A DNA stretch of 64,000 nucleotides from Polytrichum commune (taxonomy: Eukaryota; Streptophyta; Polytrichopsida; Polytrichales; Polytrichaceae). Location of the stretch: NCBI GenBank assembly GCA_950295325.1, contig OX485808.1, positions 6,140,501-6,204,500 on the forward strand, given 5' to 3'. Made by a program: the position numbers and the translations under genes. This document shows positions 1-60,967 of this stretch, one piece after another (within the stretch, counting starts at the first letter, position 1; each line of letters opens with the position of its first letter). Below the pieces are notes generated by a model, which worked only from the letters and a program-made list of their open reading frames with translations, was not told the origin of the DNA and ran no database searches.

Positions 1-1597
1 CCCACATGTGGTGATTAACTCTTCGAAACCAATTTTAGTTTGACTTTGAGGTGTTATGATTATTCACAAAACATAAAAAGAGTGAAGTGTGGTGTGGATT
101 TAAGTTTAGGCATTAGAATGTGTTGGGTGGTTATTTCAAGGGTTGAGTTCAATAGGAGAATGCCTTGATTATGTGAGTAAGGGGTAAGGTGAGGCAAGGT
201 GAGCTCCGCGGGTTAAATGCCCACTTTTGGATCCATCTTGTTAGTTTAGGAAGAAGGAAGCTTGGTGGAAGGGGATTAGTCCCTACTTTGAAGGTGAAGG
301 TTAAGGGATTGTGATTGGAGGTGCTAATCCTCTCACCCTATCCTCACTTTTCTCTCCCTCTCCCCCTCTCTCCCTCTTTGCTACTTAAGGTGTTTTCTCT
401 CTCATTTTCCTCTCTCTCCATCAAGCGCTCTCAAGGGAGCAAGCTCCTAAGAGCTTGAGCCACGTGTGTGGATTGTTAGTTTTCTAGTGAAGTTAGTTAG
501 TTAAGCTCTCTCTCTCAATTCACCCCATGGGAGTAAGCTCTTATAGCTTGAAGGCCACATGTGTGGATTAGTTAGCCTTAGTGATGTTAGGGAGTTAGTT
601 TAGTTACTTATTCCAAATCATAGAGACCAAGTAGAAAAGTATTTGATTACAAGGTAGAGTCACCAAATTAGTTTGTAGTTTGAAATCCCTTAGGTAGCCT
701 CCTAATTTGTGTGTTAATTTAGGGCCATTAAGGAGCTTGGCCAAACCTTAGTGCAAATATACTAGTCTCTGCCCATCAGACTGAGCTTACGGCTGGGCAG
801 CATATAAGCTTATGGTTGGGCCAGCAGACTAGCTTACGGTTGGGCAGCATATAAGCTTATGGTTGGGCCAGCAGACTAGCTTACGGCTGGGCAGCATATA
901 AGCTTACGGTTGGGCAGCAGACAAGCTTAACCGGTTGGGCAGCATATAAGCTTACGGTTGGGCCAGCAGAAGAGCTTACCGGTTGGGCAACATACAAGCT
1001 TACGGTTGGGCCAGCAGAAGAGCTTAACCGGTTGGGCAACATATAAGCTTACAGTTGGGCCAGCATACGAGCTTACCGGTTGGGCAGCATACAAGCTTAC
1101 TTGGCCAAACCTTAGTGCCATTATCCTAGTGACTTAGAATTAGGACTTAGGGAGAGGACTTAATGAAATTAGTCAATGTGTGAGTTGTGTGGTTAGATAG
1201 CTAGGAGGGTGTGGGGTTTTTACAAGCAACTATATTTGAGGTTAACCATTGAGGGAGTGTTTTTCAACACTTACATCCTTGTTGGTAAAAAAATCAATCA
1301 CTTATATAACAATGGAGAGGGAGGAGGACTCTAGCATTGGCAAGGTGAAGGAGAGGATAATCAAAGGCGCAAGGAGAATATCCTTGAGAGCTTGTGTTGC
1401 CAAGGTTGCCGGTTGGACTCTTGAGAAGGCCAATTCGGTTACAAGCCAAGAGGTCACTACTAATAAACAAAGTGATTCAAAATGACATGTATGCCTCGGA
1501 ATGCAAAGAGATCATTCTTTTTATACGAACAATACATGTGATTCTCAACACCATCACCCGGACTAGGACGCCTAAGGGGGGTGGTTTTGGCCTCACA
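1..1597 (-). mobile_element. LTR-like repeat, cut by window edge
   Basis: This repeat is related to 59754-60962. Both share a stretch near 'gtggtgtggattta', a 'ggttgtgattgga' stretch followed by a CT-rich block (about 345-425 here, 60090-60170 there), a block around 'ccttgagggcatgtgt' and the same end, 'ttggcctcaca'. On the minus strand that end reads TGTGAGGCC, an LTR-like start. Immediately after 1597 LINE coding sequence begins, so the repeat appears to be inserted into the LINE. Its other end lies outside the window. It is probably a solo or partial LTR; no internal region was seen. Confidence 0.5.
780..1106. repeat. Minisatellite, units of about 25 and 50 bp
   Basis: Tandem copies of 'agcttacggttgggcagcat' and 'agcttatggttgggccagca' variants alternate about a dozen times. 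The array lies inside the LTR-like repeat and is absent from its relative at 59754-60962, so it expanded locally. The short open frame that crosses it is an artefact of the repeat. Confidence 0.85.
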
Positions 1598-2686
1598 CTC
1601 ATATAAAAAATCAAAATCCTAAACACAGTCATCAAACCCCGTATTGCCTATGCATACTACGCCGTACCATTCTCCAAACCAGATATTAAGAAACTAGACA
1701 AGATAATTAGTAAACTAACCAAAGAAATTTGCAACATCCCCAAAAGTACGGCCAACATTCTCACCCACCTCCCCCATGAAAACTTTGGCATTAATGCAAC
1801 CTCACTACTACCAGACTATATAAGGTACTTAGGACAACAACTAATCCAAGCCCTCAACGACCCAGGCCAACTAGGCACCATCTACCAAGGGTTATCCAAA
1901 CATATAACAGCTAAATATGGAGGCTCACTCCATCTCCCCAAACTCAAACAACAAGCATGTATAAGGTCACCAATAGCCCGAACACTCTTTCTCCTAGAAA
2001 GAGAATATGAAATACATGTCACCACCGCAAAATGCTCATTCCCTATTAAACAAACCCCACTAGAGAAAATATGGTTAACTAACCCAAATTATGATAACCT
2101 AACGGTAAACTCCAAAGCCAAAACACAAAAATACCTAAACAAATTATACCTATACGGCATCACCACACTCCCACAAATAAAAAACCCCGACACCAAAAAC
2201 ATAGTAACACCAAAAGAATTTCAAACCATATACAAACATGCCCCTAAACTTATCAAAGAAGCCCTACAACAAGCCACAAACCTATCTCCTACTCCACCAC
2301 CCACAACAAGCACGAGCCACCCTAACTTTGAACAACAAATGCCCCCCCAAAATGCACAAACCTCAAACACCCTCCCGCCAATCTCACAACCCACATTAGG
2401 ACAAGCAATCCAAACTATAATCAATGATAAAATCATCACTAGAAAAGATAAATGGGGTGCACAAGCCATAAAACGAATATACCTATGTCAATGGCAACTA
2501 CCACAAGGAACCACCCAACAATGGCGCAAAGAAGAAGAGCTAACACACCCGGATAATATCCTCTTAGAACATAATATACTATGCATAACACAATACCATA
2601 GAAACCAAATAAAACAACAAACCATACAAACATACACAAATTGTCTCAACCACACACAATCGCGAGACAACAAATTTATACACCCC
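1598..2686 (+). pseudogene. LINE, reverse transcriptase C-terminal region (part 1)
   Basis: The plus-strand translation from about 1608 begins KILNTVIKPRIAYAYY and runs on through 'LTKEICNIPKSTANILTHLP', the thumb and connection region that follows the catalytic palm in plant LINE reverse transcriptases. The catalytic FADD box is not present, since everything upstream is replaced by the LTR-like repeat ending at 1597. The frame stays largely open through the TPLEKIWLTN region. The block ends where a solo LTR begins at 2687. It continues as parts 2 and 3. Base composition is A- and C-rich on the coding strand, unlike the neighbours. It is a dead copy with no 5' part. Confidence 0.75.
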
Positions 2687-5172
2687 TGTGGTACCATTTT
2701 TTGGACAGAATGCCTAAATTTTAGTCTTGAAATGTAAATGAATGATAAATTTTACTCAAGATTAGTCAAATAGTGAAACATTAGGCAATTAGTTGCTTGG
2801 AAAGGGAAACGGGCCAGGAAATCAGAATTTTCCTTGCTGCCCATAGTCTAGAGGATATCAGGAGGCATGGAATTCACATGTGACAACTAGAAGTAGCACT
2901 TGGTATCCTAGCTACAGTCAGTCACCACCTTTTGGGGACAGAAAGATAAGAAGGAGGAGGAAGAGGACAAAAGAGATAGCATTGTAATTTTGAACTTCCT
3001 CTCGTGAAGAGAGTGAATGTTGTTTTGTCAATTCTCCCAATTACAGGGTGTGAAACCCTTAATTCTATTGTACAACATCTTTTGGAATATATCAATACAT
3101 AGTGCAATTATCAAATCCTTTCTCAGTGAGTGGTGAATGCAAAATTGTGAACATTGTTGTTGATGTGGAATTTGATTCAGGAGTGTGAAACTCTTGAAGG
3201 GAGTGATACATGTTTCATGTTTGTATCGCAAACAATCTGGTCCGGAATTTCTTGGATAGTCTCTTAAGATTCAGGATTCCAAAGATGAAGTTGATGTGTG
3301 GACAGTGAAAGTCCCTAGTTCGGAGTAAGTTTAAAGAGAATCCATAATGCCTTGCTCTGGTGTAGGGAGCAGGTATGTGTTGTGTGACTCTAAACTCATG
3401 TGAAGAAACCAGTGACGGAAAAGGGAGTGAGAAACTCTCAGTTGCATGATAAGCCTTTAAGAAATTGCACACCCATATCAATCCGTGCCATTTTAGTTCC
3501 TTAAGTGTGTCTTACTGATGGAAGTATGTGATAAGAGTGCAATTGATTGAAACAGATAAAGGATCTCAAATCCGATATTAGTATTCCTGACCATACCTCA
3601 CAAGGGGAATGTGAAATTCCATTGTGACTGAGGACATAATTCAATATTAACGACACCGTAATAGAAGTTGTAATAATCCTATCGGGAAGAGAGAGAAAAA
3701 GTGAGCCTTACAGTGAAGCGTTCTCCTATAATATTTATGAGGGACCGATAAGTATGGGGAATCTTATTGTGATAGAATCGTGGTATGAGGTTAGACTTTG
3801 AGAATGCATCCCTGTGTTATGGCCGAAAACGAGCTTTGTGAATTAATTTACTCGAGTCATGTTGTTGCTCAACATCGGGGTGTAAAGCCCGTTATTCCTG
3901 ATATATCACTTGAAGCATAAATTAAGAGAGTCATGAGCCGTAACAGTTTGGACAAACTGTAGGAGAGTTAACACTCCTTGACTCCATTTAGAATAATCAT
4001 CTTCTTGGTAGTTCAATTCCATGGCTTAACAGATGAGAGTTGAATTCTGAGAAGAGAGTTTCTTGGGAGAAGCTGACTACCGAAATCCCCACCGGGAGAA
4101 ATTCCATCTTTATGAATTCAATCCGGAGAGTGTTCGGGAATTCGCGAAATCAACTCGCAATAATTGGACATAAGAGAGTGTGATTCGGGGAAAGAAATCA
4201 CACTATATTTTTTCCTCCGTATTTGGTATTCCGAGAAGGAATCTTTTTGGTGTTCGGATTGAAGCCTTACAAGATCCCAGAAAAAAAAAATCGTCTTCTT
4301 TGTGTAAATCGCTCCTAAGAAGAGAGTGGGAGAATTCTAATTGAAACTTAAAATGATGTTTGCCGTGAGCAATTATGCTCTGTAGCTTGTGCTTCACCTG
4401 ATTGAAGGAAAGAGTTGTTGAGTCCCTGTTCGAATCTGAAGAGTAGTAGAAGGTGTAAAATTGAGCCAAAGAATTTGTGAACCTGAGTTAATGAATGTGT
4501 AGCTGAGGAATGTTGAAGTAAACTGTTCCAAAAAGCACCTAGACGAGGCAGTTGTGCGGAGACAAGGAACATAAGGAGTTAAGAGAAAGGAAGGAGTTGC
4601 GTGCGGAAGCTAAGCGTGCAGTTATCCCATATCGGTTGGGGGTTCCAACAAAGGCAGGTATAAAGCCTATCCCTCCTTGGTGGCTAATGTGTCTAGACGC
4701 TTCTCATGACACAACAAGACTCGCTACTGGTTACTAGTGACTAGACTTGTCACTTGGAACTAAGACTGTCTACTTGGCACTTGTAACTAGGCTGTCTACT
4801 CGAGACTCGCTACTAGACTTGTGTTACTAACCTAGGCCGGTTCGCACGCTTAAGACTCGGTTCCTATCACTCGTTACTAGACTTTTGTTAAACATAAGAG
4901 CATGATAATTTATTTATGAGCACTAAGAGTCTTTATCAATGTTCATGAGATATAAAATTGTGGCTGAGTAATTTACTCCTTATAAGCTAATTTATCCTAA
5001 CAAGTGCAAATGAGGAAGTAAATTTTAAGTTAATTGACTGTCAAAAGCATACTATAAACGTTTTAACCTATCAATTAACCTTATCGTGACAAACTAGAGA
5101 TACATCTGACACTCATTTGGTCTTCCCTGGGGTTTTTCAGAGTTTGAACCCTACCCTAAAAAGCTAACTACA
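2687..5172. mobile_element. Solo LTR, 2486 bp, inserted in the LINE
   Basis: The block begins TGTGGTACC and ends CTAACTACA, the usual TG...CA of an LTR. The five bases ACCCC stand on both sides (2682-2686 and 5173-5177), and the LINE sequence is collinear across the single remaining ACCCC. A TATA-like 'tataaagcc' lies near 4660. No gag or pol sequence is inside. It looks like a complete solo LTR left by recombination. The start and internal motifs such as 'catagtctag' resemble the LTR-like block at 38948-40571. Confidence 0.75.
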
Positions 5173-5979
5173 ACCCCCCTAGAAAAATTAACAACCTCAA
5201 GTTATCCACACAAGAGTACAACCCAGACCGAGACATACAAGTAGACAAACCAACCATCCAAATACAAGCCTCAGAAGCCAACATCTATGACCAAAGAGGA
5301 AATTACATGGCCACCATCACCAGTGAACGACTACAATGGCTTTGGGACCAATTCTCCCACAATAATCACACAAATAACTAACTCCTTACTACCTCCCCCC
5401 CAAAACTTCGAAACATAAATACCATGGCTCATACAAAGATACATAACCATACTCCCCAAGAAAAAACCAAAAAACATACAACCAAATAACCTACACAATG
5501 CACTACACCCAACAATTACCAAGACACTAATAGAATCATTTAAAATCACACACTCGTACTACTCATCACCCCTTACATGGCCCACTCACCTCACACAATA
5601 TCACTCACTCCACAACCGAGACAAAATCTTTGGATCTATGGGACACGCACAATCCACTAGATGGAGAGGCATTGGCCTAGCGCACCCTACGGACTACAAT
5701 ACCATAGTGGAAGCCATCCATTGGGCCCGGATGGCATCTAAAGAAGATACGAACACAGTCACCATACTAATAACCAACCATAATGACTGAACACCACAAC
5801 AACTCCAATTTACCACAAAGGGAGATATACATATACTAACAACCATCCCACCACACACCATACAATACAAGCCCACAATAGAGTGGCCAAAATACTACCA
5901 ATATGAAGAACCATCCTTGATCTCAATACTATGTATACATAGCCAAACAAACATAACACCAAATTTACAAACCCCCAGT
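5173..5979 (+). pseudogene. LINE, linker between RT and RNase H (part 2)
   Basis: This continues part 1 after removal of the solo LTR and its duplicated ACCCC. It reads NNLKLSTQEYNPDRDIQ and later 'KIFGSMGHAQSTRWRGIGLA' and HPTDYNTIVEAIHWARMAS, which is the typical spacer between reverse transcriptase and RNase H in this kind of plant LINE. The reading frame changes and in-frame stops are present, for example after ITNHND near 5788, so it is degenerate. It ends at a second solo LTR at 5980. Confidence 0.65.
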
Positions 5980-8059
5980 TGTCGAGGTCACCTTCAAACC
6001 CTCAGCAAACTTAGACGGTGTAACCCGCTGCTGACCGGTTTACATGGAAGTTACTCCCACCAAAATTAGATCCTTCATTAGGTTTTCCATTTATGGTGAA
6101 GGTGTATGCACTCATATAATCTTAATTTTGTGATACATAATCTTAATGCTCTTTTGAATCCTCAAGGACAAATTGACCTAAGTTTTCAAGTTTATGTCCC
6201 CCGAAATCTAATGTCAAGGTTAGGTGTTTTTAGGGAGAACATCGTTCATACATACAATATCTTTCATGGTTTGAAAGATCGTAAAAGATTCTTAATCCAT
6301 TTAAGAATGTGTGTTTATGATAAGTTCACAATTCCTTTGAAGGTCCAAACATACTCCCTCACTAAAGTATATTCATAAGATTTCATTCTTCTACTCAATT
6401 CCTAGAGTTCACATAATTTAGATGAATCTTTGTTCTATATCTACTCAAGTCCTTTTTCCTTTGCAATTCCTAGGCTATCATTTGGAGTACATGTGAAGAG
6501 GTGTGTTTAGAGATGACATTTTGAGTAATGCTCGATGTAGCCATCTCTCGTTCGTCCTTCTCTTGGTATGATGGTGAAATCCGACGCCTTCCACCAAGTA
6601 AATCACTTCATACTTTTCGATCCATGATTACCAAAACTCCAAGGTAGCCCTCACATGTTAGATCTCCCTTTTATGCAATGGCTTTGAAAACATTATCTCC
6701 AAGCTCTTCAAAAGGTAAGTTCTCCAAAGTCCCTTTTCTTTTGTGGAATTTCTAATTTAACGCCACTCACGGTTTCCGAGTTTTCCTCAAAAGATTCTAA
6801 GTTCCAATCTTGTGTTTCACGGCCTTACGCCTCCACTTTTCTTCTAATTATAAGTCCTCCAATTCTCTAAGTTTTGAGAAACTTCCGAATCCTTCTCGGT
6901 CTCCGGGCACAAGGATTTATCAATACTTTTAAACCTCGGACACCAAGAATAGTTGATCCGTAATGGTTTTCTAACTTACGGCCTCCAATCTCCAGGGCCT
7001 CCAGTAGCAAGGGCCTCCAGTATCAAGGGCCTCCAGACTCAAGGGCCTCCAGTCTTCTTCAATCCTCCGAGGATAATATTTCAATCCTTTTAGTTCCGAA
7101 AGCCTCCGAGGATAATATTTCAATCCTTTAGTCTTCAAGCGCGAGGATATATTTCAATCCTTTAAAGTTCGTAGGCCACCGGTCTTCTAGTCCGCCACCT
7201 CGAGTTGCTTGCGTTGAATGAGGTCTTATAGGGCCCCTAAGTGCCCCCTTATATAGGCTTTGAGATCTAGGAAAATGGGGATTAGGCGGTTAGGTCTTTT
7301 CCCAATGTAAAATGTTTGTATTTACTAATTTTAGCTACTGTATGTAATTACAGTCTAAATCCGACCCTGTCATATCTATTAATAGTACTGACACGTGCTA
7401 AATTTAGATCAGTCAATGGGGTACATTCGGGCATGTATTAGTCATCTAGATGTGCCAAGAGTGCAACTCTTCTAATCTCATCCATAACCTCCGTTCATTC
7501 CAAAGTTTACTCCCCATTCATTGACGGCAATGGAATTAGGTAAGTTCATCCAGGAATAGTCATCCTCCTTTGTCCTTTCATCCGCTCTTCTACGGGTTCA
7601 TCCTCCTACTCCCTTACTATCTCTACTTACTAATCTACTAAGTGCCTCCTAACTTATTAGTATAAAAGTTCTCACTAATAGACCTATTCAAAATTGAGCC
7701 TCTAACCTACTAGTCTAAAAGTTCCTACTAATAGGTTTACCAAAATTTGGGCTCGGCCCCTAGCCCTAAATATTGCGGTGGGTCCTACAAAAGGGAGCGG
7801 CCCGGGCTTAGTTCTTCGCAGCCCTCTCGCTACTACCGGTCTCGCAGCTCCCTCAGGCTCCCAACCTCCTTAGCTGCGCTTCCAGCTTTCTTCCGCCACG
7901 TGGCCGGCCTTCCTTTCCCGGCTCGCTCCCAGTCTGTCTCCCGACCTTCGCTCTTGCTTCAAACGCCTCCCCCCCTCTTGTGTTGTCGCCTGAACTCTGT
8001 CGCCGAAACTGAATCCTTATGATGTTGAGTGTTCCCCTGTTGATCTGGAGGTATCTACA
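5980..8059. mobile_element. Solo LTR, 2080 bp, inserted in the LINE
   Basis: It starts TGTCGAGGTCACC and ends GGTATCTACA. CCAGT occurs on both sides (5975-5979 and 8060-8064), a 5-bp target duplication, and the LINE frame rejoins cleanly over a single CCAGT. Inside are tandem 'gggcctccag' units at about 6998-7050 and a GC-rich segment at 7770-7990 that resembles an LTR promoter and leader. Open frames in that GC-rich part look incidental. No internal retroelement genes remain. Confidence 0.75.
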
Positions 8060-8644
8060 CCAGTGCACTATCGCACGTACTAAAACAAATCACCAACACA
8101 CATATAGACACCTACCCCATCAAACCCACCACACCACACTACCACATCAAATTCTCCAAAACATGGAAAAACGCACCCAAAAATAATACCCCCACAACAA
8201 ATACCATCACCCCAACACCCTTACCAACTACATACTACCACCAACACCCTCTTAAATACCACCCGACACAATGCATATACACTGATGGATCATTTATCCC
8301 CCCATCCAAAAACTCAGAAGGACAAATAGAAGGCAACACCGCGGGATCTGGAATATACAGCCCGAATAACAACATTCAAATATCTGAAAGACTACCGGGG
8401 CACCAAAACATCCTAAGAGCAGAATTGAATGCCATACTCCTCGCCATCAAAATCATAGAAACCACACGAATAGACACACATATATTTACAGATAGCCTCA
8501 ACAACGTATATTTAATCAGCAACCACATACAACGCCCAACTTCACTGTACCATCACCCCGATAAACTCCTTATAGCAGCCATAGTACGCCAAATCTACTG
8601 GACTCCACACTTAATTCACATCCACAAAGTACGGGCCCATACGG
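8060..8644 (+). pseudogene. LINE, RNase H domain (part 3)
   Basis: The plus strand encodes a recognisable ribonuclease H. YTDGSF carries the first catalytic Asp (about 8278-8295), RAELNAILLAIK the Glu (about 8418-8453), and FTDSLNNVYLI the second Asp (about 8488-8520), with IHKVRAHT at the end. Such a domain removes RNA from the RNA-DNA hybrid and is found at the C-terminus of some plant LINEs. The domain is cut at 8645 by the LTR of a Ty3-type element and its remaining C-terminus was not found. It is part of the same LINE as 1598-2686 and 5173-5979. Confidence 0.75.
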
Positions 8645-9851
8645 TGTCGGGTAGAGAGGGGTCCGCCTTAGGAAAGCACTGGGCTTCTGGCTGCAACTAG
8701 ATTTTATCGGACCCGTCGAATCTTCTGGTCTTCAATCGAGTCTTCTGGTCTTCTAGTCTTCAATTTCTTCAATTTCTTCTAATCTTCAACCTCTTTCCCG
8801 TCGACCTATCCTGTTGCAGCTCTATATGGGTAAAGGATAAGGGTAGAGTGATAAGAAACCATGGGCTTCGAACGGGTAAAACGGGACGTCAGAACACGAG
8901 CTGACGTCCGAAAGATTGGCTCCTAAACTTTCAAACCCACGGTGACCAGCAATCGCGCCTCAGCAGTGGGAACGACAGAAAACAACCTTGTAGGTGATCA
9001 ATCCCACTTCGTTGTCACAAACAACCTTGTGGGTCATTAATCCCACTTCGTTGTCACACATGAAACAAATTACGATGCAGAAATGAAATGCAACTAGCCT
9101 CCAAAACCGGCTTGGAATCACACACACAAGAAAAAGACAACGTGCCACAAGCAACCACACATTCGAGTCTTGAAGCCTTCAATTTTCAAATCTGTCCGTC
9201 TTCTATGGTCGGTCGAAGTCTCAGCTCTTCTTTTAAGAACCAACAGACTTCCCTCCACTCAAACAAGCACAAATCTTGATTGCTAACTTCCAAAACAACA
9301 AGTGAGATCTCTCATGAATCACAAATCCCTCGTATTTTATTTCATATTCTTCTCAAAACAACTCACACCGTGAGCTTCGAATCCACTTCTCTCTCTCAAC
9401 AACTTCTCTCCCACAATAATCACATAACATCTTTCCTTCACCACCTCTCTCTATCCATGCGAAAGACAAAGTTCTATCTTATCCTCATCACATGGCTTCT
9501 AATCACCCATTGGTCCAAAAAGTAACTCAAGATAAACTAAGTAAGACTAAAAAATGTAAAGTAAATGCAACACTAAGAGTAAATTGTGAGTAAACAAAAG
9601 GATAAAGGTAACTATCCACTTCTATCCACTTTTATCCTTTGGTAAAGGTAACTAAGAGTAAACTATGAATAAATAAAAAGGTAAGCAACTTCTATCCACT
9701 TCTATCATTAGGTAATGATAACTAAAATAAACTATGAGTAATTAAAAAGTAATCTACTTCTATTCTTTATTATTTTTCTCCAAGACCAAGAATCACAATG
9801 CAATATTAAATACGTACACATCTATATAGTGTACGTATTTACATTACGACA
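8645..9851 (-). mobile_element. LTR of the Ty3-type element, 1207 bp
   Basis: Read on the minus strand it starts TGTCGTAATG at 9851, directly after a purine-rich tract (AGAGGGGGTGAAA, about 9852-9866), and ends CCCGACA at 8645 against LINE sequence. The start holds a small palindrome around 'aatacgtac'. Internal direct repeats include two 'cccacttcgttgtcaca' units (about 9003-9058) and several 'cttctatccactt' units (9610-9710). It is the 3' LTR of the integrase-bearing part. Confidence 0.7.
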
Positions 9852-9895
9852 TTTCACCCCCTCTAAATCTGCACATCCTCCGGTATGTGCCAAGT

Positions 9896-11263
9896 TTAGT
9901 CTTCTCCATCATCTTGGTCATCGTCTGATATATTTTCTGTTGGTTCATACTCTCCTTGAGTTTCGTCTTCGTTAATTCGGGAGTCTGGATCCATAAGTTC
10001 TGCAAGCTCCTCATAGTAAAAGCGTCCATCTCTTCTTTTGAAAACCTTAACTCTTTTCCCAGCTACAGGTGTTCGTAGAAGAGTCCCATCCAATTCGCGA
10101 AGTGAATAAGTGCCATTGGAATGCACTTTGATCACCACATAAGGCCCAAACCATCTCTTTACAAACTTGCGCACCGTGCTATGTTGATTCTCCAAGGAAC
10201 TGTCAAATACAAGTACCCAATCTCCTTCTTCAATTTTCCTCACCCTCAATCGATGCGTCTTGTCAAACTGCTCCTTGTTGCCGAGCCTTGCAACCTTCAA
10301 TCGTTCCAATGCCATTGCAATGTCTTCAGGCAATCTCTCAAGTTGTTGTATACGAAGCTCCAACAATCTTTCTGTACTAATGCCATCCTCCCATGAAAGA
10401 AAAACCCATGTGGGAATATCTTCCTCCCCTGACATCATTGGCTTTTGTCCATATATAAGCTCCACAAGCATGTAACCCGTCACTGTGCTATGTGTGGTTC
10501 TATCAGCCCATAGAGCAAATGGTAGCAATTTTGGCCAAATACTATGTTTCCCCTTGCAAGCTTTAACCAATGTATGAATGATTGGAGGATGTCCCCTCTC
10601 GATCTTGCCATTAGCCTCAGGGTTGTAAGCCGTTGTTAACTTCAATTGCACACCATATCGCTTGAAAAATTCTTTGGCTTCAGCGACATCCAATTCTCCT
10701 CGGTCAGCTCTCATCCTACCAAAGCTCCCATACCGACTAAAAATATCTTCAAGTATAAATCGGCATACATTTTCTGTTGTCTTAATCCTCAAAGCTCTTC
10801 CTTCAACAAAGTTTGAAAGTTCTTCTCTAGCTAAAACAAGATACTTTATTTCCCACATTGCATTTGGCATAGCAACCAAATCAATCATCCATTGGAAATG
10901 GATTGCAATGGGATAAGTAGGATGTAACTCATCTCTATGTCGTACCTTCGATTGCAATTGGCATACTACACAAGATGATACAAATTCTTCAACATCTTTG
11001 TATAGCCCCTTCCACCAATATCTCTCCTTGATTTTTATATAAGTGGCCCAAACTCCTTTGTGACCAGCCCAAAATGAATCATGAAATTCTTTAAGAACTT
11101 GGGTCTTAGTCTCAGAATCCCCAACCACTCTCAATGGCATTTGATCAGCTCTTTTCGCTCTCTTCCACAAAACCCCATCTCTTAACAGATAACCATAGGA
11201 TTGATGTCTGATGGATTTGAATGTCTTATCCACCCAACCCGCTTGCCGCTTCATTGTACTCAA
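9896..11263 (-). pseudogene. Ty3/gypsy integrase region (fossil part)
   Basis: A 455-residue reading frame shows the integrase zinc-binding module (HDSFWAGHKG and, later, CVVCQ), the catalytic core with WMIDLVAMP, MRADRGELDV and 'YNPEANGKIERGH' in the family's Asp, Asp and Glu order, and a C-terminal module with RKFVKRWFGPYVV, the GPY/F-type end of Ty3/gypsy integrases. The tail is acidic and no chromodomain was recognised. In life it would insert the cDNA copy into chromosomes. It ends just before the polypurine tract and LTR. It is part of a broken element. Confidence 0.85.
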
Positions 11264-11311
11264 GTAAGTCCAATATCTCTTAATTTTCCTTCATAAAGCT
11301 CGGTTGTAAAG

Positions 11312-11469
11312 TCCACTTCTATCCTTAGGTAATGATAACTAAAATAAACTATGAGTAAATAAAAAGGTAATCTACTTCTATTCTTTATTATTTTTCTCCA
11401 AGACCAAGAATCACAATGTAATATTAAATACGTACACATCTATATAGTGTACGTATTTACATTACGACA
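11312..11469 (-). mobile_element. Second copy of the LTR edge, about 158 bp
   Basis: This stretch is nearly identical to the right end of the LTR at about 9696-9851, including 'aatacgtacacatctatata' and the end ACGACA. It separates the integrase region from the methyltransferase, protease and gag region. That means the element is built from two copies joined or nested, rather than one simple insertion. Confidence 0.8.
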
Positions 11470-11907
11470 CCGTGTATCACCCAATAATGGCACATTTTCA
11501 AAAATGTACCCTGGCGGAGTTGATTGGTGGGTAAACCACCATTGTGTCAATCGCATCATATCCGCGAACAAACTAGACCTAGAATCATCCAAACCCTGGC
11601 CAGTTCTTGCCCGTGAATGACCTTGACAAGGCCATTCTGCAATAATTAAATCCACGTGGCCCAATCTTCTCAAATCCTCATCACTAATCATAGTGACATC
11701 TTGAGGAAGTTGACCACAACATCCAAGAATGGCAGAGGCTGACAATTATGCGGGGTACCTCAACAACAATTGTTGGATGTGGTGTCGAACGGTTCTGTTG
11801 GCTGCATATCCATTATCCACATGAATATATCGCCTAACTGTAATCCCAACCTCCAACACTGCCGCCAAACATGTGCCAATACCCCCAAAGATTTCCACAA
11901 GGTCAAT
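11470..11907 (-). pseudogene. Cytosine-5 DNA methyltransferase domain in the retroelement (fossil part)
   Basis: Downstream of the protease, the minus strand encodes hallmarks of C5 methyltransferases. There is motif I in DLVEIFGGIGTCLAAVL, with an acidic motif II-like end (RYIHVDN), then LPQDV, then the motif IV loop in VDLIIAEWPCQGHSRA with the catalytic Pro-Cys, then GQGLDDSRSSLFADMMRL, and motif VI in YIFENVP. The arrangement and the V-RYI/LF spacing resemble the Dnmt3/DRM type more than Dnmt1. The later target-recognition and motif IX-X parts were not seen before the LTR edge. Gypsy elements with such domains were reported from the charophyte Klebsormidium, with the idea that they methylate their own DNA. 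Here it is part of a broken copy. Confidence 0.8.
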
Positions 11908-13560
11908 ACCTTCAGGTGGTGGTTGCCAACGAATGGGTTGAGCAAAAGAAATTGAGGATGACGTTGGAGGTGTCTCTCCAAGCCCCAAATCCGCTACAAT
12001 GTGTCGACAATGGTCGGATAACTCCTTAGGGGTACGCCATGGTGGCGGTGGATACTTGAAATGTCGAGCAGAAATTAGTAAAGATGGCAAAATTTGTTGT
12101 TCTGCTGCATTACAAGCGTAGTCCAATGTTTCCTCCAACAAAACTGGAGCACAAGGCAAATCCGCAACTGAACCGCTACAACCAAACCTGGCCTCCGCAA
12201 CCATAGTCATAGAAGTAGCTGCAAATGCTACAGGAATAAATACCTTCCTACCATCTCCAGAAGACCATCCCGGTCTAATCCATGCCTCTTCAGTCCAATT
12301 ATCCAAACCAAAGCCAAGTGGATAAAGAGCTTGCTGACCAACAAGTATATCATAGTTGGTAGCATTAGTAACAACATACTTCATTGACAAATGAGTGTAG
12401 GTAGGTCCTGCCCCCACATTAAAAATCAAACGTAGAGGTGCCTTGGTGTAACCTGTTGTACGTTCAGTGACCCCTACTGAAGTCACAATTGTGAATGGAC
12501 AAGGATCTAAGTTTGCGGGCATCAATCTAAGACTGTCAGCAAGTCCTTTGCCAATCATAACCGGTTGAGCACCGGAGTCCATCATAACTCTCAGTGGTGT
12601 AGCACGAATAGTAGGAGTATCCGCGCGTGAAACGACAAACAAAGATTTGTCGTTCATCAGCCGTACAACTCCAGGTTGCAAATTATGCCGCTCGCGAGCA
12701 GGCCTTGCAGAAATATCTGCAAGGTATGCCGCTCCCGCTGCATAATTCAAAAATGACGTGTCCACTGCTGAAATTGTTGATGGAGGAATATCAGTTTGCT
12801 TACCAAAAGCAATGATCGCTGCATCCGCAAGGCTCGCTCGTAAATTGGCTAAGTCCTCCACCTCTTCAGCCACAGGTACGTCAACAACAGCTTGGGATAC
12901 TTGAAGGGATGGCAAATCCGCCTTTCCTTTTAACATTTTCCGAGCTAAATGGAAAACTCCAGCAAGCTTGAAATCCGGAGCCATCAACTCCGAACCCGAG
13001 AAAATTGGCATATGGAGAATTTTATATGCCAATGTCTGCGTAACATCCTTCGAGATGGAATGCCCATCTCTCAAAGGTACAGGGTTTTTAGCCCCAACAA
13101 TAGTGGTGTCTACCAATCCAAATGAGAGAGGTAAACGTGTTTGACCAACTTGATCCGCTGGTCCGGCATGGCGAGGATGTGACACCTCGTTGCTACCACC
13201 ACTTGTAGAAGCCACCGCATTTGCTAATGTTTGTGATCGAGTAGAAGCCGCAGCCACCACCTCTCCAGATGCCCCAAACATATACATGTCCGAACTCGAG
13301 GTGCCACCACCCGCATGCGGCTCAGAAATTTGAGCAAAAGATGCAGAAGATTTGAGCTTTTGCTCAAGCTCTGCCACCTTAGCCTCAAGACTCTGCTCCC
13401 TTGGAGATTTGCCAGTGACATAACTGGCAGGCCGCATCTCAGAATGATGTTGGAAACAATGATCGTGATTAGTGCCACCACAATGGTTACATTTCAATTG
13501 TCTCTTCTTAGAATTGTCCCCTGCCTTTACTGGTTCTATCTTTTGTTTTAATTTTCCCAA
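11908..13560 (-). pseudogene. Retroelement aspartic protease region (fossil part)
   Basis: A long minus-strand frame runs from a Cys/His-rich N-terminus (CNHCGGTNHDHCFQHH, a zinc-knuckle-like motif) through a low-complexity linker to an aspartic protease. The protease has LRVMMDSGAQPVMIG with the catalytic Asp-Ser-Gly, and YDILVGQQALYPLGF as the second conserved stretch. A Pro-rich linker with WQPPPEG leads into the methyltransferase motif I. In the family the protease cuts the Gag-Pol polyprotein. Confidence 0.75.
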
Positions 13561-14671
13561 AGGCTGGGTTTTTTCTTCTTAGGACAATTGGGATCATTCT
13601 TCGAATGACCAGCTTCTCCACAATCCCAACAATGCAAAATCTTTTGCTCCTTAATGGTTTGAGTCTCAGCTAAACTACTAGTAGCTGTGACAATTCTTCT
13701 TGATTTCGTACTCTCTGTCATCCAAGATACCATATCTGTGGCATCGTGTTGACATAGAGCCCGATCACATCTCTCAACCACGGCAAACGTTTGTGCAAGC
13801 GTAGCTCTGCCTTCGTAGTCGAGGATAATCCGAGGTGATGCCAACTCAAGTAGCCGCTTGTCAATCTTAGACAAAAAGATTTTGACAAGCTGACTCTCAG
13901 CAAAAACACCTCCCGACTCAACAACAAAGCGTGCGAGTCGCGTATACATGGTCCGTGGAGTGTCTGAATGCGCTGCATCTGGTCTCGCCGAAATCCACCA
14001 TACTCCACCTCCAAATGTGCGACAAATTCAGCAAGGGGATTAAATGGAGGTGGTGGACCAACAGCCGTCAATGCTGCTTGTGTAGCACGTGCCATCCGTG
14101 AAAGGGTAGCCGTACTACTGCCAGCCACTATTGGCCCAAGTGTCAGTTCTTTGTCCTTAGACTCCTCCGGTGGATCCTCCTCCTTTAAGGTGGGTGGAGC
14201 TAAGGTGGCAATCGCCCCATCTTTAAGGGCTGAAATAAGCTCAACCCGGGCCTCCCAATACTGCTCCACCTCCCGAAGTTGTCGATGATGACCCTCTGTC
14301 CAGCGTTCGTAAGTTTGGAGTGCCTCATACTCCAAATGTTGAGGCAGAAGTTCAAAGGCATACCAATCATTGAAATTGGAAGACCTTTGACGTTTCTCCT
14401 TAATCTAGGTACGAAACCGGAGTTTCCAATTGGGCAAGGAAATGCCCCCAGCTCGACCTGAGAACCGATCACGCACTGAACCGTGGTGATTGTCCTCCAT
14501 TTCGTCGAACGTGCCAACATTCCAAATCCGAAGCCTACTAGTAGTGTCCAACGCCGAAATAGGCTCAAAAGCCTCGTTGGTATCTACCTCTGGCTCAAGA
14601 TTTGTGGTATGCACGTCCTCCAAGTAATTTGGTGATGGAGATCGATAATATCGGCTCCTAGTTTGCACCAT
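13548..14671 (-). pseudogene. Retroelement gag region with zinc knuckle (fossil part)
   Basis: Overlapping minus-strand frames show a gag-like capsid region (AEFVAHLEVEYGG, AQTFAVVERCDRA) and a CCHC zinc knuckle, HCWDCGEAGHSKNDPNCP, near 13570-13630. The N-terminal part, from 14671, includes a DNA/RNA-binding-like basic start, MVQTRSRYYRSPSPNY. In the family gag packages the RNA copy. It is broken, like the rest of this element. Confidence 0.65.
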
Positions 14672-14832
14672 AAAATAATCACTTGAGTACCGGCAACTAT
14701 CTACAAGGTAATGGCAACCTGCACCTGTTGCGGGCTATCTAAATGGCAATCCCTTGCCAAATGCCAAGTGTTTATTTAGGCCCCCAGAATTCCAAAATTG
14801 TGCAAAGGTTTGAGATTGGTAATTAAAATTAA

Positions 14833-15841: not shown

Positions 15842-17680
15842 CTATAGCCGCGTTAGCATCCTCCTCATGTTTGGAGAAGGGGCAATCTCATCCTCCGAGT
15901 CCCCTGCTCCTTCTGTCCATGGTGTTCCGGTACCTGGTGTTCCGGAAACTATACTTCCCTTCCGGACGCTCCGGATCGGAGAAGGATCACTTCCGGTGCG
16001 CTGTTCCGGATTCTGTCCGCCCGAGATCGAGGTAGTCCGCGGATCCCTGGTGGAGGCCGCCCTTGAGGGTGGCGGAGGGAATGAGTTCACCATTTGGCAG
16101 TCCGGAGGAGACGACGGCGAGGCTTGGGTCATAGGGGCCTTACCCCTACTCGGAGTTGCCTCTCGATCCGAAGTTTGGTGTCTTATAGGGGTCCGAGCTC
16201 TGTCCGGAGTCCGGTACCGATCCGAGGTCCGCGGAACAGGGGACTGGCCTCGTCGGGATCTAACAGACCCGGTGCTCTTCCGCCTCACCTGGGGAGAGCG
16301 GATCCTTTCCGGAGCTCTTCCGGAACTGGCAGGCCGAGAGCCGCTTCCCTGCTGGCTGGGTCCTGCAGCCGTTGGCGGATTCTGGACCAGGGCGACTTCA
16401 CCCACTACCTCGTAGAGGGTTCCGGTTGGTGACCCAGGTGGACCCGGATAGAGTACCCGCCGGGGTGTTCCGCTTGGCAGAACCACCTTCTGGATTTCCG
16501 CCAGGAAATCTTTCATTGTCTGTGAGTATTTCACGAGGATGGGGAGGACCTGCCTAGTGGAAGCTGGTTCTCCAGACTCCATCATCCGGTCGTAGAGATG
16601 CGCCTTGTTGACGATCTCTGCCGGATGCCCCACCAGCTCCCTGATCCGGCTGAAGACCACTGCCTGCTCCGCGTGGTACTTCCGGATTTCCTTGCTCTTC
16701 TGACTCAGCTCCTGACTCATGGCCGTTACCTGCGCGGTGAGGTGAGCGTTTTCCGTCTTGGCTTGCTCGAGCTCCTTCCTGTCCGCCCTCTTCGCCAACT
16801 CCCGGAGAATATTTCCGGGTCCGCAGTCGTCTAGGGCCTGGTTCGCTCCCCGGACGATGTGCTCCAGCCGGAAGTACTGGTTCTGCAGATCCTCCAGCCC
16901 CTCCTGAACCCGCTTGAAGGGATTTTCCGGAAAGTCCCAAGTGGAGAGATCCACGTTCCGCCAAGTGGTCTCCCGGTTGGGTCCGGCTACCGGATGATAA
17001 TGAAGGGGAGGAGAGGTTGGTCTCGGGAGGGTCGGCGGCGGACTTCCGGGTGAAGAGGGAGGCGCTTCCGGAATGATGGGGTCGCTCGAGGTTTTCGTCT
17101 CGAGGTCTCCGACTTCCGGATGGAGCTTGTAGGTGACCTCGTCCGCCGCTATAGTCAGCATGTCCTCCTCCTCGGCCGTGATGCAGTCGAAGTGCTGATA
17201 AACGTGCAGAATGAAGGGGGAGAGAAAGGAGGGTTTCCGACCTACATTGGGGAGGGCCCGCCCTACTACCTCGTGAATTATCAACCCCCAATTCACGGGC
17301 CGGACTCCGGACATAGCACCGAACATGGTGTTAGCCATGGTAAGGCTGATCCGCTTAGGCTTGTCCAAGTTAAGGATGGGCATGAGGAATTCTAAGACCC
17401 TCCGCTCTCTAAGGTTCCGGCAGTTCCCGGGGTGGAAGCCGTCCTTCGGGTCCGCGTCCCCTCTAAACTTTCCAGCGAACAGGCCATCGCGGCGGCCGGC
17501 CCATCCCTCTGCAATCCCTCTCGGAAACCCGTAAACCCTATTCCAGACTTCCGGAGTCCAATTATCCGGATCCCTCCTTTTGGTTCCCAACCACTGATTC
17601 CCTCTCTCGAACTTGAATTCCCGGAGGGTATCTTCCGCTCGGAGGTTCCAGGGTTTGGCGAGCAACCCCGCGCAACCCAT
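15842..17680 (-). pseudogene. Gag-like protein of a GC-rich retroelement
   Basis: An uninterrupted minus-strand frame of 612 codons starts at an ATG (MGCAGLLAKPW). The first 200 residues look globular, with RPVNWGLIIHEVVGRALP and 'FLSPFILHVYQHFDCITAEE', reminiscent of gag or transposon-associated proteins common in plant genomes. Residues about 205-235 are Pro/Ser-rich, about 255-370 look like a coiled coil, and the last 180 are Ser/Arg/Pro-rich and basic (RRKSTGSVRSRRGQS). No zinc knuckle, protease or polymerase was found nearby, so it could be a gag-only non-autonomous retroelement. The hexamer TCCGGA or close variants recur very often. The family is not firmly recognised, and it could be a host gene of unknown function. 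Confidence 0.45.
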
Positions 17681-18412
17681 AACCCGGAGATCCTCCGCTA
17701 GCTCCTACAGCTCCCCGTCCTCCCTCGGAATTGCAGGGATGAGAGCTTTGAGCGGAATTGGGATGAGTTCCCTCCGGTCCTCTTCCCGGGCTTCCGGCAT
17801 TTTCCTTTCTTCTCTCAACCTCTGTCACAACTACGGAAATTCCCTCCCCTCCGGGTTCCCTCTCTTCCGCTTAATTGCTACGGAGTCCCGGCAAGCCAAC
17901 TGCCGGTAACTAGAAATTGCGGAGTCCCAGCAATCCAACTGCTGGCGGCTCGAAAAACAACCTCACCACTCGTTCTCTCAACAAATTTCCCTCGTAAGCG
18001 AAAAAAAGTGGGGAGAAGGAAGGGACCCTTAAATATCCTTCCTTCCTCTTCCTTCCCCTGTTACCGTTCGTTTTAACGGAAAACGGTTGCCAACGGTTTT
18101 CCAACAGTTTTCCCCCAACCGCCACAAGTTCGTTGTAACCGTCGTTACCAGCCGCCTCTCCACTTCCGGACCGTTGGGTAAACGTGGTGTAACCGTTACT
18201 TGGTCCGGATCATAATCAAACGGTCCTCCTAGTCCAATTTGCCGGACCGGTAATAGTACCCTTTTTATCATTTTTATCGTGCAAGGCGGATTTAGAACGC
18301 CCTATTTCCTAGTACAATTAATTTACCCTAAGAGACCCTATTGTCCTCATGCGAGCAGGGTAAAATACGGAAAATGGATCCGTATTTCCGTAGAATATTG
18401 GGCTCCCACACT
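17681..18412. other. GC-rich leader, then tapering flank
   Basis: This is upstream of the gag-like frame on the minus strand. It holds CpG- and TCCGG-rich sequence, 'ttaacggaaaacggttgcca' type repeats of the AACGGTT motif (18060-18115), and then AT-rich DNA. The composition suggests an LTR or promoter of the same element, but no matching second LTR was found. Confidence 0.35.
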
Positions 18413-24200: not shown

Positions 24201-26157
24201 AAAGCATGATGCATTGTATGTGGATTTCACATCATCAAATACAGCCTTAGCCAAGGTGGTCTTCCCTATTCCACCCATACCGATGAGACCCAAGACATTC
24301 ACTTGTTTAAGCAAATTTTTCACTTGAAGACGTTTGGTTTCAAGACCTACCAATTTTTCATTTTGTGTTGATAATTCATCCGCCTAAACAAAGAACACAT
24401 ACGTTAGGATCCTCTATTAAGAGTTCAATAATCAAAATCCAATTTCAAGCAAATTAAATTAATAACAATAAAAACATGACATCTCATAGATAAGCAATAA
24501 GCACATTGTAGTAAACTTAAGTTCATACCTTCTTTGTAGCAAGGATGTTTTTGACATGCTTCAAGGCTTCCGATTTCCTTTCCATATGTTGGGTCATGGC
24601 CCAGTCTTTATCAAACCATGGTATGTCATTCGAATACGTTCCAATCATGAACTCTTTCTTCAAGGCTGTGAGCCGTTTACAAATGTTAGAAAATGTTGGC
24701 CTTTGTGAAGGATCTTCAACCCAACATTCTTCGAGCAACACGGTAAGGTCCTTACAATTGATAGGTAGGTCTGGCCTCACATGATCTTTTATCTTTTGTA
24801 AGATGTCTTTCGTGCTCTTAGTGTCCCAAAATGGTTGCTTAAGAGAAAGAATCTCTGAACATGTCATTGCAAATGACCATACATCAGCTTGGAAAGGACA
24901 TGCCGCACAAGGTGGATCTTCTTTGTTTTTGTTCCCCATCTCAGGTGCCATATACTTTCGTGTACCAATAGTATGTCTTTGTAATTCTGGTTTGCTTTGA
25001 ACCTCCATTTTGGAAGTATCATAATCCATCAATTTGACAAAACCATGGCCACAATTTCCCTCTACTCCTGCAATTCCCATGGAGCTTAGAAGCACATTGT
25101 CTGGCTTTAGATCAAGATGGGCAACATACATGTCATGAAGATAACACATGCCCTTTGCAATTTGATACATTATATCAATTGCAACAATATATGATAAGGG
25201 TTTCTTTTGCTTCTTCAAGAAACTACCCAAGCTCATCTCCATGAGCTCCATTACTAAATATAGTTCTTTTGCTTCATCAAGACTGTCCTCAAGGTTTTCA
25301 TTAGTTCCACAACCAATGAATTTGATGATGTTTGGATGACTCAAGCCTGCTAAGAGTTTGGCTTCTTTGAGAGAGTTTGGAGAACCTTTCATTACTTTTG
25401 TTGCACTTTGAAGTCCCATCCAACTTGATTTGTACACTTCACCTACTTGTCCAGAACCTATATTTCCCGAGAAGTCTGGTTTCATAAAATCCTTTGAAAT
25501 CTCCGAAGCATCCAATTCTGCACCTTTCACTTGTTGCAAGTCGTATTGCACTCTCTTCAACAAATATTTTGCTAATGTATAATTTGGCGTTCTTTGAAGG
25601 CATTCTAAAAGCCGTTTTTCCAAGTCTTCTTCATCACCTTGAATTTCGTCATAAGTGGCCACATTAAAATCAATGCATGGGATGTCATGTTGTGACTCCA
25701 CGCACCGAAGTGAATATATTTCGCATATTGCATCCCAACAACATTTCAAATCGTACACAAGTTCTCGAAAGGCCTCCCTATTGTTCATTTGGAATGCAGC
25801 TGCATGGCACCATTCTTGCTTCCCACAATCTTCCACCAATACTCGTACTCTTTGATTAATTCGACATAACTCCTCTAGCGCAAGCCCAATATTAAAGGTC
25901 TCATTTGTAGACGTGATCATCCCATTGAAATGATACACGACTCGGTCGAGTTTGTTGAGAAGATTTTCACATTGTCTCTTATTAAGCACTTGCTTTGTCT
26001 TAAGAACCTCATGAAGTTTGGTTACTTCTTTGCTTTGCCACTCCAAAATATCTCCAAGCTCATTTTGTTCTTGTCCTTTTCGCACATATGTCCAAAACTT
26101 TAAAGAGATAATACTTATGAAACCCCAAATCAAAACCCGCTGCAAGATCTTGGCCAT
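21207..26157 (-). CDS. Kinase-NB-ARC-LRR immune receptor (PNL class), three exons
   Basis: Exons are 26157-24529, 24383-23355 and 23123-21207. Both introns (145 and 231 bp) are GT...AG and phase 0, giving 1524 residues. The start MAKILQRV has a good context and lies about 35 bp below a TATA box; earlier in-frame codons are not ATG. Residues 4-24 are hydrophobic and could be a membrane segment or signal anchor, and 35-200 look like a helical bundle. Kinase 228-502 has a Gly loop 234-242, Lys254, HLDLKPDN 347-354 (non-RD), DYD 378-380 in place of DFG, and APE 404-406. NB-ARC 544-886 has GMGGIGKTT 578-586, LILDD 653-657, TTRD 684-687, GLPL 743-746 and MHD 848-850. LRR 924-1523 is 25 repeats of 24 residues. 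By family, NLRs sense pathogen effectors in the cell and bind ATP/ADP at NB-ARC. PNL genes are known from mosses. No break was seen, so it is probably functional. Confidence 0.9.
21213..23012 (-). repeat. 25 tandem 72-bp LRR units with higher-order blocks
   Basis: Each 24-residue unit follows the form CxSLxTLPEGLGNLxSLTTLxLS. Nearly identical blocks recur on top of the 72-bp period. The marker 'gacaatttaagggttgtcaa' occurs at 21505, 21793, 22081 and 22441, spaced 288, 288 and 360 bp, that is exactly 4, 4 and 5 repeats. The first six repeats (CWRMTTLPEG, CESMTTLPEG and so on) are more diverged and probably ancestral. Long frames on the opposite strand across this stretch are by-products of the repeat. 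Confidence 0.95.
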
Positions 26158-26191
26158 GATGGAACACCTATTATTTAACCCAACATGAGGA

Positions 26192-26202: not shown

Positions 26203-26299
26203 CCGCCTGTTTTGCACACCATAACCTTGTAAGTACAAAATAAATGTTTTGATCTTCCAGAACACAAATTTTCAATGTAATTTTAAATGATATAATTCT

Positions 26300-60962: not shown

Positions 60963-60967
60963 ATGAC

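What the first reader, a model, noticed from the sequence alone, without database searches (positions are those of the whole stretch)
11470..13560. Ty3/gypsy-type retroelement with a cytosine-5 DNA methyltransferase after its protease
Seen: protease signature MMDSGAQPVMIG, then methyltransferase motif I (EIFGGIGTCLAAVL), motif IV (WPCQGHSRA) and motif VI (FENVP), on the same strand and next to each other. Known: retrotransposons carrying C5 methyltransferases were described from dinoflagellates and the charophyte Klebsormidium, and thought to methylate their own copies. Inference: a related lineage lived in a land-plant genome, so the capture is either older than the land-plant split or was repeated. 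The copy here is a broken fossil.
Basis: partly seen in the sequence, partly recalled or inferred. Interest (0 to 1): 0.88.

Follow-up and report, generated by a model that had tools for sequence, protein, structure and literature searches.

The report
Retrotransposon carrying a DNA methyltransferase
A decayed jumping gene in what looks like a moss genome carries, as a built-in and long-conserved part, an enzyme domain that puts chemical marks on DNA, the kind of mark plants normally use to silence such jumping genes.

Summary
On the minus strand one frame runs from an aspartic protease (DSGA) into a cytosine-5 methyltransferase (PF00145, E 1.3e-9), broken by one stop codon. This copy, "element A", spans about 14710-11470: gag, zinc knuckle, protease, then the methyltransferase up to motif VI. 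It ends exactly at 11469, where the LTR start of another Ty3 element ("B") begins; the integrase at 9896-11290 belongs to B.

Decisive is a relative on a public contig binned as a cyanobacterium (L092/L112, CADCWO010000201.1). It is collinear with A from gag through the methyltransferase (63% over 422 residues, protease to motif VI) and has open frames: gag-PR-MTase, then UAG-CAA-UCA, then in the same frame RT-RNaseH-integrase-PHD finger. dN/dS over motifs I-VI is about 0.06 (dS saturated). So the methyltransferase is an integral, selected domain of a Ty3 family.

Its full domain is most like DNMT3 by sequence and, among solved structures, by fold, but very divergent (motif IV PCQG, not PCN); its donor is unresolved. 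A Klebsormidium Gypsy element with Dnmt3 is published, so this is a new member of a known kind; I found no report of one in a land plant in the open-access library searched.

The parts
14673..14710 (-). 5' leader of element A just upstream of gag
   Evidence: covered by the blastn match to L112 at 14310-14710, 72.6% identity; both leaders printed
13980..14672 (-). gag of element A, begins MVQTRSRYYRSPSP (one in-frame stop near 14407)
   Evidence: tblastx to L112: 68.6% over 156 aa (14674-14207), 49% over 61 aa (14185-14003), 75% over 52 aa (14119-13964); stops listed
13548..14027 (-). nucleocapsid part with CCHC zinc knuckle; the frame shifts on either side of it
   Evidence: PF15288 E 0.0036, below cutoff; 53% over 123 aa to L112
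12739..13578 (-). spacer between zinc knuckle and protease, same open frame as the protease
   Evidence: ORF 13578..11746; tblastx 54% over 65 aa and 40% over 103 aa to L112
12384..12690 (-). retropepsin-type aspartic protease (DSGAQPVMIG)
   Evidence: PF13975 E 4.2e-4, PF13650 E 0.0034, both below cutoff; conserved in L112
11746..11991 (-). C5 methyltransferase, N-terminal piece with motif I (EIFGGIGTCLAAVL)
   Evidence: collinear with L112; not significant in Pfam alone
11746..11748 (-). in-frame stop codon that interrupts the methyltransferase of this copy
11470..11745 (-). C5 methyltransferase piece with motifs IV (WPCQGHSRA) and VI (FENVP); motifs VIII-X absent from this copy
   Evidence: PF00145 E 1.3e-9; TIGR00675 E 6.7e-10, below its cutoff; 74% identity to L112 over 144 codons of motifs I-VI
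11312..11469 (-). truncated 5' LTR of nested element B, begins TGTCGTAATG exactly where element A stops
   Evidence: 97.5% identical to 9695-9851; A/L112 similarity ends at 11464
9896..11290 (-). integrase (H2C2 zinc finger + rve) of element B, not of element A
   Evidence: PF17921 E 9.5e-21, PF00665 E 9.4e-5 (the latter below cutoff); 83.8% over 413 aa to L118; the window methyltransferase piece matches no contig of that bin but L112's
9695..9851 (-). start of the 3' LTR of element B, preceded by a purine tract (AGAGGGGGTGAAA at 9852-9864)

Best explanation
Element A is a decayed copy of a Ty3/gypsy LTR retrotransposon family whose upstream polyprotein is gag - zinc knuckle(s) - protease - DNMT3-like cytosine-5 methyltransferase. 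In the relative L112 this frame ends at UAG-CAA-UCA, which fits the type I readthrough context of plant viruses, and reverse transcriptase, RNase H, integrase and a PHD finger follow in the same frame. SHOWN: the domain order, the collinearity of two independent copies, strong constraint on the methyltransferase between them, best likeness of the L112 domain to DNMT3 among solved structures, and the interruption of the window copy by the LTR of another Ty3 element (B). INFERRED: (1) the methyltransferase is made at Gag level because it lies before the leaky stop, while RT-IN-PHD is made in smaller amount by readthrough; (2) it is packaged and cut free by the protease; (3) it methylates cytosines of the element's own cDNA in the particle or at the insertion site, so that new copies arrive already marked, which would shield cDNA from host sensing or make new insertions quiet and less harmful; (4) the PHD finger on integrase reads a histone tail to choose chromatin for insertion. 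In the window copy these functions are dead.
For: Single frame PR to MTase in the window with one stop. PF00145 in window and L112 (E 1.3e-9; 1.2e-12). Collinear similarity gag to motif VI, 63% over 422 aa for PR-MTase. L112: ORF 3..3491 (1162 aa on the held stretch), then TAGCAATCA, then a 1047-aa ORF in the same frame with RT E 1.4e-31, RNase H, integrase, PHD E 1.3e-10; type I motif UAG-CARYYA in PMC5382211 (passages read). RT closest to Ty3 among PDB chains (4ol8, E 3.6e-71). dN/dS of MTase I-VI 0.06 on 144 codons, against gag 0.12 and protease/linker 0.11. Best PDB sequence match of the L112 MTase is DNMT3A (E 1.6e-8); the 50 listed of 1009 Foldseek PDB matches of its model are all DNMT3A/3B entries, some with DNMT3L. 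L112 ends overlap by an exact 127 bp, as expected when an assembler closes an LTR element into a one-LTR circle (the reading as a circle is inference). In the aligned PR-MTase stretch 28 sites are CG in L112 and TG/CA in the window copy, 9 the reverse, 14 CG in both, which would fit decay of methylated CG by whatever enzyme. Self-methylation of cDNA was proposed for retrotransposon DNMTs in PMC5890265 (parts 1-5 of 7 read).
Against: No activity was tested. Element A is not CpG-poor as a whole (o/e 0.68 against 0.55 for the window, 0.58 for B), so no lasting footprint of self-methylation at CG is visible. The published yeast test of the Klebsormidium element's DNMT showed no methylation (called inconclusive by its authors). 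Synonymous sites are near saturation, so dN/dS is rough, and only one pair of copies could be compared. L112's host is unknown. Motif IV is PCQG, not the PCN of DNMT3/DRM; a phage C5 methyltransferase model is matched about as well by fold as DNMT3A (E 1.1e-12 in BFVD; 6.7e-13 in the PDB); and in the 116-row tree a starred branch puts DNMT3A and 88 phage, viral and bacterial rows on one side and the query pair, two DRM rows, DNMT1, DNMT2 and 21 others on the other. Readthrough and self-methylation are inference.
Confidence: 0.7

Rival explanations
1. The methyltransferase piece is an unrelated insertion or gene fragment that happens to lie next to a retroelement protease.
For: The two motif blocks are separated by a stop codon and the piece ends abruptly.
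Against: An independent element in another record has the same order with 63% identity straight across the protease-methyltransferase boundary, in one uninterrupted frame; the stop is in frame, and the abrupt end coincides with the first base of another element's LTR.
Confidence: 0.03
2. The methyltransferase was acquired from a bacterium, phage or large DNA virus rather than from a host DNMT3.
For: Motif IV is PCQG as in bacterial/phage enzymes; tblastn of the 90-aa motif IV-VI piece hits 222 phage and 61 plasmid records at E <= 0.01, best E 9e-9, while its PDB hits put HhaI (E 0.0038) before DNMT3 (E 1.2). The best viral fold match is a phage C5 methyltransferase (E 1.1e-12). In the 43-row tree DNMT3A and DRM join a phage row, not the query pair.
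Against: The L112 domain matches DNMT3A best among PDB sequences and structures; AU tests do not reject grouping with DNMT3A + DRM (p 0.36), DRM (p 0.54) or DNMT3A (p 0.39). The query branch is very long, so placement is unsafe.
Confidence: 0.3
3. The window copy contains a whole but rearranged element, the integrase at 9896-11290 being part of the methyltransferase element.
For: Integrase frame and methyltransferase lie about 180 bp apart on the same strand, in an order possible for a Ty3 element.
Against: Between them lies an LTR start that is repeated after the integrase. The window integrase is 84% identical over 413 aa to L118, whose RT matches L112's RT at only 29%, while it matches L112's integrase only over short stretches at 24-46%. 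No PHD finger was found in the window integrase frame.
Confidence: 0.03
4. The methyltransferase is a passenger or regulatory mimic without enzyme role in the element (for instance a nucleic-acid-binding domain).
For: Motif IV context differs from DNMT3; no activity data; element A as a whole is not CpG-poor.
Against: The catalytic PCQ, ENV and the RxR of motif VIII are kept in L092/L112 and the domain is under strong constraint.
Confidence: 0.15

Closest known systems
KnitGypsy-Dnmt3 of the charophyte alga Klebsormidium nitens (de Mendoza et al. 2018, PMC5890265; main text parts 1-5 of 7 read, figures and supplements not seen)
   Same: LTR Gypsy element with an unrearranged Dnmt3-type C5 methyltransferase in its polyprotein, under purifying selection (published Ka/Ks < 0.2).
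   Different: Host here is apparently a moss. In L112 the methyltransferase lies before an in-frame UAG, with gag-PR, while the published one is described as in the Pol ORF. The published element has DIRS-like repeats; these were not seen in L112, but a one-LTR circle could hide them. The word PHD does not occur in the main text. Sequences could not be compared.
SymbioDIRS-Dnmt3 and SymbioLINE-Dnmt of dinoflagellates (same paper)
   Same: Retrotransposon-encoded C5 methyltransferases.
   Different: DIRS and LINE elements, not Ty3; considered independent acquisitions by the authors.
Eukaryotic DNMT3 / plant DRM methyltransferases
   Same: DNMT3A is the best PDB sequence match of the L112 domain and the listed fold matches are DNMT3A/3B entries; unrearranged motif order.
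   Different: Motif IV PCQG instead of PCN; an insert of about 20 aa before motif IV; very long branch; DRM has the rearranged order (recalled).
Ordinary Ty3/gypsy elements such as element B in this window (L117/L118 family)
   Same: RT-RNaseH-integrase of Ty3 type.
   Different: No match to the window methyltransferase piece in that bin outside C201; integrase and RT of another lineage.

Membership tests
C5 cytosine methyltransferase (PF00145) | Profile match above cutoff with motifs I, IV, VI | tested here: met
   (E 1.3e-9, 38.4 bits, cutoff 22) for the motif IV-VI piece; motif I by collinearity with L112
C5 cytosine methyltransferase (PF00145) | Complete domain with motifs VIII-X | tested here: not met
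   Absent from the window copy, which stops at 11469; in L112 a motif VIII-like HRPRWIWTNM and a motif X-like tail follow motif VI
Ty3/gypsy LTR retrotransposon | gag with CCHC and DSGA protease | tested here: met
   Pfam matches in the window are below cutoff; accepted because of collinearity with L112
Ty3/gypsy LTR retrotransposon | RT - RNase H - integrase order with a Ty3-type RT | tested here: met
   Met by the relative L112. The window copy has lost this half and cannot show it.
Ty3/gypsy LTR retrotransposon | Paired LTRs with primer-binding site and polypurine tract | tested here: inconclusive
   No LTR pair for A in the window; L112 has overlapping ends and a purine-rich tract before TGAGGG near 6945 (read by eye); primer-binding site not identified
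Eukaryotic DNMT3 | DNMT3-type sequence and fold, unrearranged motif order | tested here: met
   L112/L092: DNMT3A best PDB match by sequence and by Foldseek; a phage C5 enzyme scores about as well in the viral library
Eukaryotic DNMT3 | Motif IV PCN | tested here: not met
   PCQG in both window and L112
Eukaryotic DNMT3 | Falls inside the DNMT3 clade in a tree | tested here: inconclusive
   long branch; a starred branch of the quick tree parts the pair from DNMT3A; AU does not reject union with DNMT3A and DRM (p 0.36-0.54); only 1 DNMT3 and 2 DRM rows were available
KnitGypsy-Dnmt3 lineage | Common descent of both RT and methyltransferase | not testable with these tools
   No Klebsormidium sequence could be fetched; literature only

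The most novel reading that the evidence does not exclude
A Ty3 retrotransposon lineage of streptophytes, vertically kept from algae to mosses, carries a write-and-read pair for chromatin. A DNMT3-type methyltransferase is made at Gag level before a leaky UAG and marks the element's own cDNA or landing site; a PHD finger on the integrase, made in small amount by readthrough, steers insertion to particular histone marks. The element would thus install its own methylation state instead of waiting for host silencing.
Probability: 0.25. Interest if true: 0.88.

Novelty: new member of a known kind. Interest (0 to 1): 0.62.

Why it matters
Plants use cytosine methylation to silence retrotransposons, so an element that brings its own methyltransferase and keeps it under strong constraint asks what the element gains from being methylated. 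A land-plant carrier would put the question in mosses, some of which have good genetics and methylome methods, instead of only in a charophyte alga and dinoflagellates. The relative with open frames gives a testable enzyme, a testable readthrough signal and a testable PHD reader.

Tried and rejected
Tried without result: whole genome of the window (none held); viral-contig scans with the 90-aa piece, the 610-aa piece, the PR-MTase alignment, the L112 RT and the L112 MTase (no confirmed relative in any of these 5). A sixth scan with alignment A2 gave 117 confirmed loci, 80 kept, best segments 23-48% identical; they were used for the trees and not examined for retroelement genes. 388 genomes of the class of G001: 1 match, G001 itself. 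The window's kinase, NB-ARC and RNase H frames in G001: no match; not informative, since the bin's eukaryote contigs that I saw are repeats. A tree to place the methyltransferase left its origin open. CpG depletion of A against the window was not found. A PDB search of the protease-to-motif-I piece gave nothing.

Rejected: integrase as part of element A; chance neighbourhood of the methyltransferase; chance motif match. The link of the label AVDCRST with the Avdat desert crust is my inference; the term does not occur in the main text of the paper on that crust, which says the crusts hold little or no moss (passages only). So the host of L112 may be a moss, an alga such as Klebsormidium, or something else. 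The 84% match of element B to L118 (87% to L117) in the same bin favours a relative of the window's host for those two contigs, but need not hold for L112.

Slips: the first printed line compares stretches out of frame and is void; the other lines are used. One variable in that script joined the contig's overlapping ends and was never used.

Full report
WHAT IS THERE. On the minus strand of the window a retroelement copy ('A') runs from about 14710 to 11470. Gag starts with MVQTRSRYYRSPSP near 14672; it carries a stop near 14407, and the frame shifts twice before the 610-aa open frame 13578..11746. That frame holds a spacer, a DSGA protease and the start of a C5 methyltransferase with motif I. 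A single in-frame stop follows, and the same frame goes on with motif IV (WPCQGHSRA) and motif VI (FENVP). The second piece alone hits PF00145 at E 1.3e-9. Against a profile of 28 other methyltransferases, the best of 1000 shuffles scored 1.5 bits while the window piece scored 56.9; the motif I piece alone scored 6.4 bits, which is not significant.

WHERE IT BREAKS. The methyltransferase reading ends exactly at 11469. From there 158 bases are 97.5% identical to 9695-9851. The second copy is preceded by a purine tract, AGAGGGGGTGAAA, and starts TGTCGTAATG, as the 3' LTR of a Ty3-type element would. The integrase frame 9896-11290 lies between the two. It is 84% identical over 413 aa to L118 and 87% over 171 aa to L117; these come from one metagenome bin and belong to a Ty3 element whose RT is only 29% identical to that of L112. 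So this is a second, nested element, B, whose 5' LTR is cut to 158 bp. The tblastx search of the whole window against L112 found no further part of A, and no RT of A.

THE KEY RELATIVE. One scan of the genome-contig collection (one genome for each of 84,980 prokaryote species; alignment A2) gave 52 pattern matches, of which 19 were confirmed. Eighteen are in records labelled as bacteria or archaea, with best segments of 25-57% identity, several of them short. One, L092, matches all 193 residues at 64%. It lies on CADCWO010000201.1, labelled as an uncultured Synechococcales MAG, but it is plainly a retrotransposon; the same bin holds five more contigs with Ty3-like RT, so the bin contains eukaryote sequence. 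The whole contig (L112) has ends that overlap by an exact 127 bp. It encodes gag, zinc knuckles (one weak profile match; a second by eye), protease, an apparently full-length methyltransferase, then TAG CAA TCA, and in the same frame RT (E 1.4e-31), RNase H, integrase and a PHD finger (E 1.3e-10). Among PDB chains its RT is closest to Ty3 (E 3.6e-71). Window A is collinear with it over gag (68.6% over 156 aa), nucleocapsid (53% over 123 aa) and protease-methyltransferase (63% over 422 aa); the similarity stops at 11464. Two independent records thus carry the same protease-methyltransferase fusion.

SELECTION. Nei-Gojobori counts between A and L112 give dN/dS 0.06 for methyltransferase motifs I-VI (144 codons, 74% identity), 0.11 for protease plus linker (277 codons) and 0.12 for part of gag (155 codons). 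Synonymous sites are near saturation (dS 1.9-3.2; not computable for three other stretches, two of the spacer and the nucleocapsid), so these are rough. They still say that the methyltransferase was kept at least as strictly as the structural proteins (the first line of that output is an out-of-frame slip and is not used).

WHAT KIND OF METHYLTRANSFERASE. The short window piece by itself looks bacterial: 222 phage and 61 plasmid records match at E <= 0.01, and HhaI comes before DNMT3 in the PDB. The L112 domain matches DNMT3A best among PDB sequences (E 1.6e-8), before HaeIII/HhaI (about 1e-5) and DRM (0.006). An AlphaFold2 model of L092 (428 aa, mean pLDDT 69, better in the core; built on an alignment of phage, viral and bacterial enzymes) has only DNMT3A/3B entries among the 50 listed of 1009 Foldseek PDB matches, best E 6.7e-13; the best viral match is a phage C5 methyltransferase at E 1.1e-12. 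Motif IV is PCQG, not PCN. In a 116-row quick tree (109 of 109 fetched loci other than L092 and the G001 loci, 2 queries, 5 eukaryote pieces) the query pair branches next to DRM and a large set that holds DNMT3A and DNMT3-like phage enzymes (SH-aLRT 86, not starred), but a starred branch (97) separates 89 rows, DNMT3A among them, from the 27 that hold the pair, DRM, DNMT1 and DNMT2; the program warns of long branches. With 43 of these rows (DNMT1 and DNMT2 left out) the pair stands on a branch of length 5.9, and the AU test does not reject it with DNMT3A and DRM (p 0.36), with DRM (0.54) or with DNMT3A (0.39). Its donor is therefore open.

HOST. A kinase, an NB-ARC and an LRR frame lie next to each other on one strand at 26271-21207. 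A PK-NBS-LRR class (PNL) was described from the moss P. patens (PMC3352924, abstract read). The window is therefore most likely moss. The host of L112 is not known; element B kin in the same bin (84% aa over 413, 83% DNA over 1208 bp to L118) favours a relative of the window's host for those contigs, but the Klebsormidium possibility is not excluded for L112.

HOW IT MIGHT WORK. In L112 the methyltransferase is upstream of UAG-CAA-UCA, which fits the type I readthrough motif UAG-CARYYA of plant viruses (PMC5382211, passages read). The nine-base pattern occurs twice in the contig, one of them on the other strand; 0.27 are expected by chance and 8 of 200 shuffles have two or more. What is telling is its place, at the only stop between the two long same-frame ORFs. 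If it works, the methyltransferase is made in Gag amounts and RT-IN-PHD in smaller amounts. Methylation of the element's own cDNA was proposed by de Mendoza et al. for retrotransposon DNMTs (PMC5890265). My data neither show nor exclude it: element A is not poor in CpG (o/e 0.68; window 0.55), although in the aligned stretch 28 CG of L112 are TG or CA in the window copy against 9 the other way; that asymmetry could equally come from host methylation or from the lower G+C of the window.

COMPARISON AND NOVELTY. Retrotransposon DNMTs are published from Symbiodinium (LINE, DIRS) and Klebsormidium (Gypsy-Dnmt3). Of my ten literature searches, six were on this subject. Searches listed only that report and one review (PMC9861306, listing seen only); two searches returned nothing; one search listed 20 of 43 general papers, none of which I opened, among them a moss and a hornwort genome paper. 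I saw no report of such an element in a land plant; subscription papers and supplements were not searchable. I therefore file this as a new member of a known kind, whose host group, PHD tail and readthrough layout may turn out new once compared with KnitGypsy.

Noticed in passing
window 57858-59246 and 61546-62934: Inverted repeats of 1389 bp, 99.9% identical, flank frames with a weak SWIM zinc finger match (60828-61295, E 0.004, below cutoff): possibly a young Mutator-like element with long terminal inverted repeats.
   Followed up: no
window 21207-26271 (-): Protein kinase, NB-ARC and LRR frames in a row: fits a PNL-type resistance gene as described from moss; the LRR part is a tandem array (about 72 bp period).
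   Followed up: partly
window 5419-5790 (+): Fragment matching PCIF1_WW (PF12237, E 2.2e-7, 31.0 bits against cutoff 31.1), upstream of an RNase H frame (8044-8700). PCIF1 is a cap adenosine methyltransferase (recalled), so possibly another methyltransferase-related piece near a retroelement; no PDB match.
   Followed up: partly
window 15842-17704 (-): Open 620-aa frame, G+C 60% against 41% for the window, best Pfam match E 0.065; just upstream of element A.
   Followed up: no
L112 6459-6593: PHD finger (PF00628 E 1.3e-10) at the C-terminus of the Ty3 integrase of the methyltransferase element.
   Followed up: partly
G001 contigs C16, C91, C92, C123, C201, C259: A MAG labelled as a cyanobacterium (AVDCRST_MAG81) contains six contigs matching a Ty3-type RT, i.e. 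eukaryote contamination.
   Followed up: partly
window 773-1100: Tandem repeat of about 95 bp units, 80-91% identity between the aligned copies.
   Followed up: no
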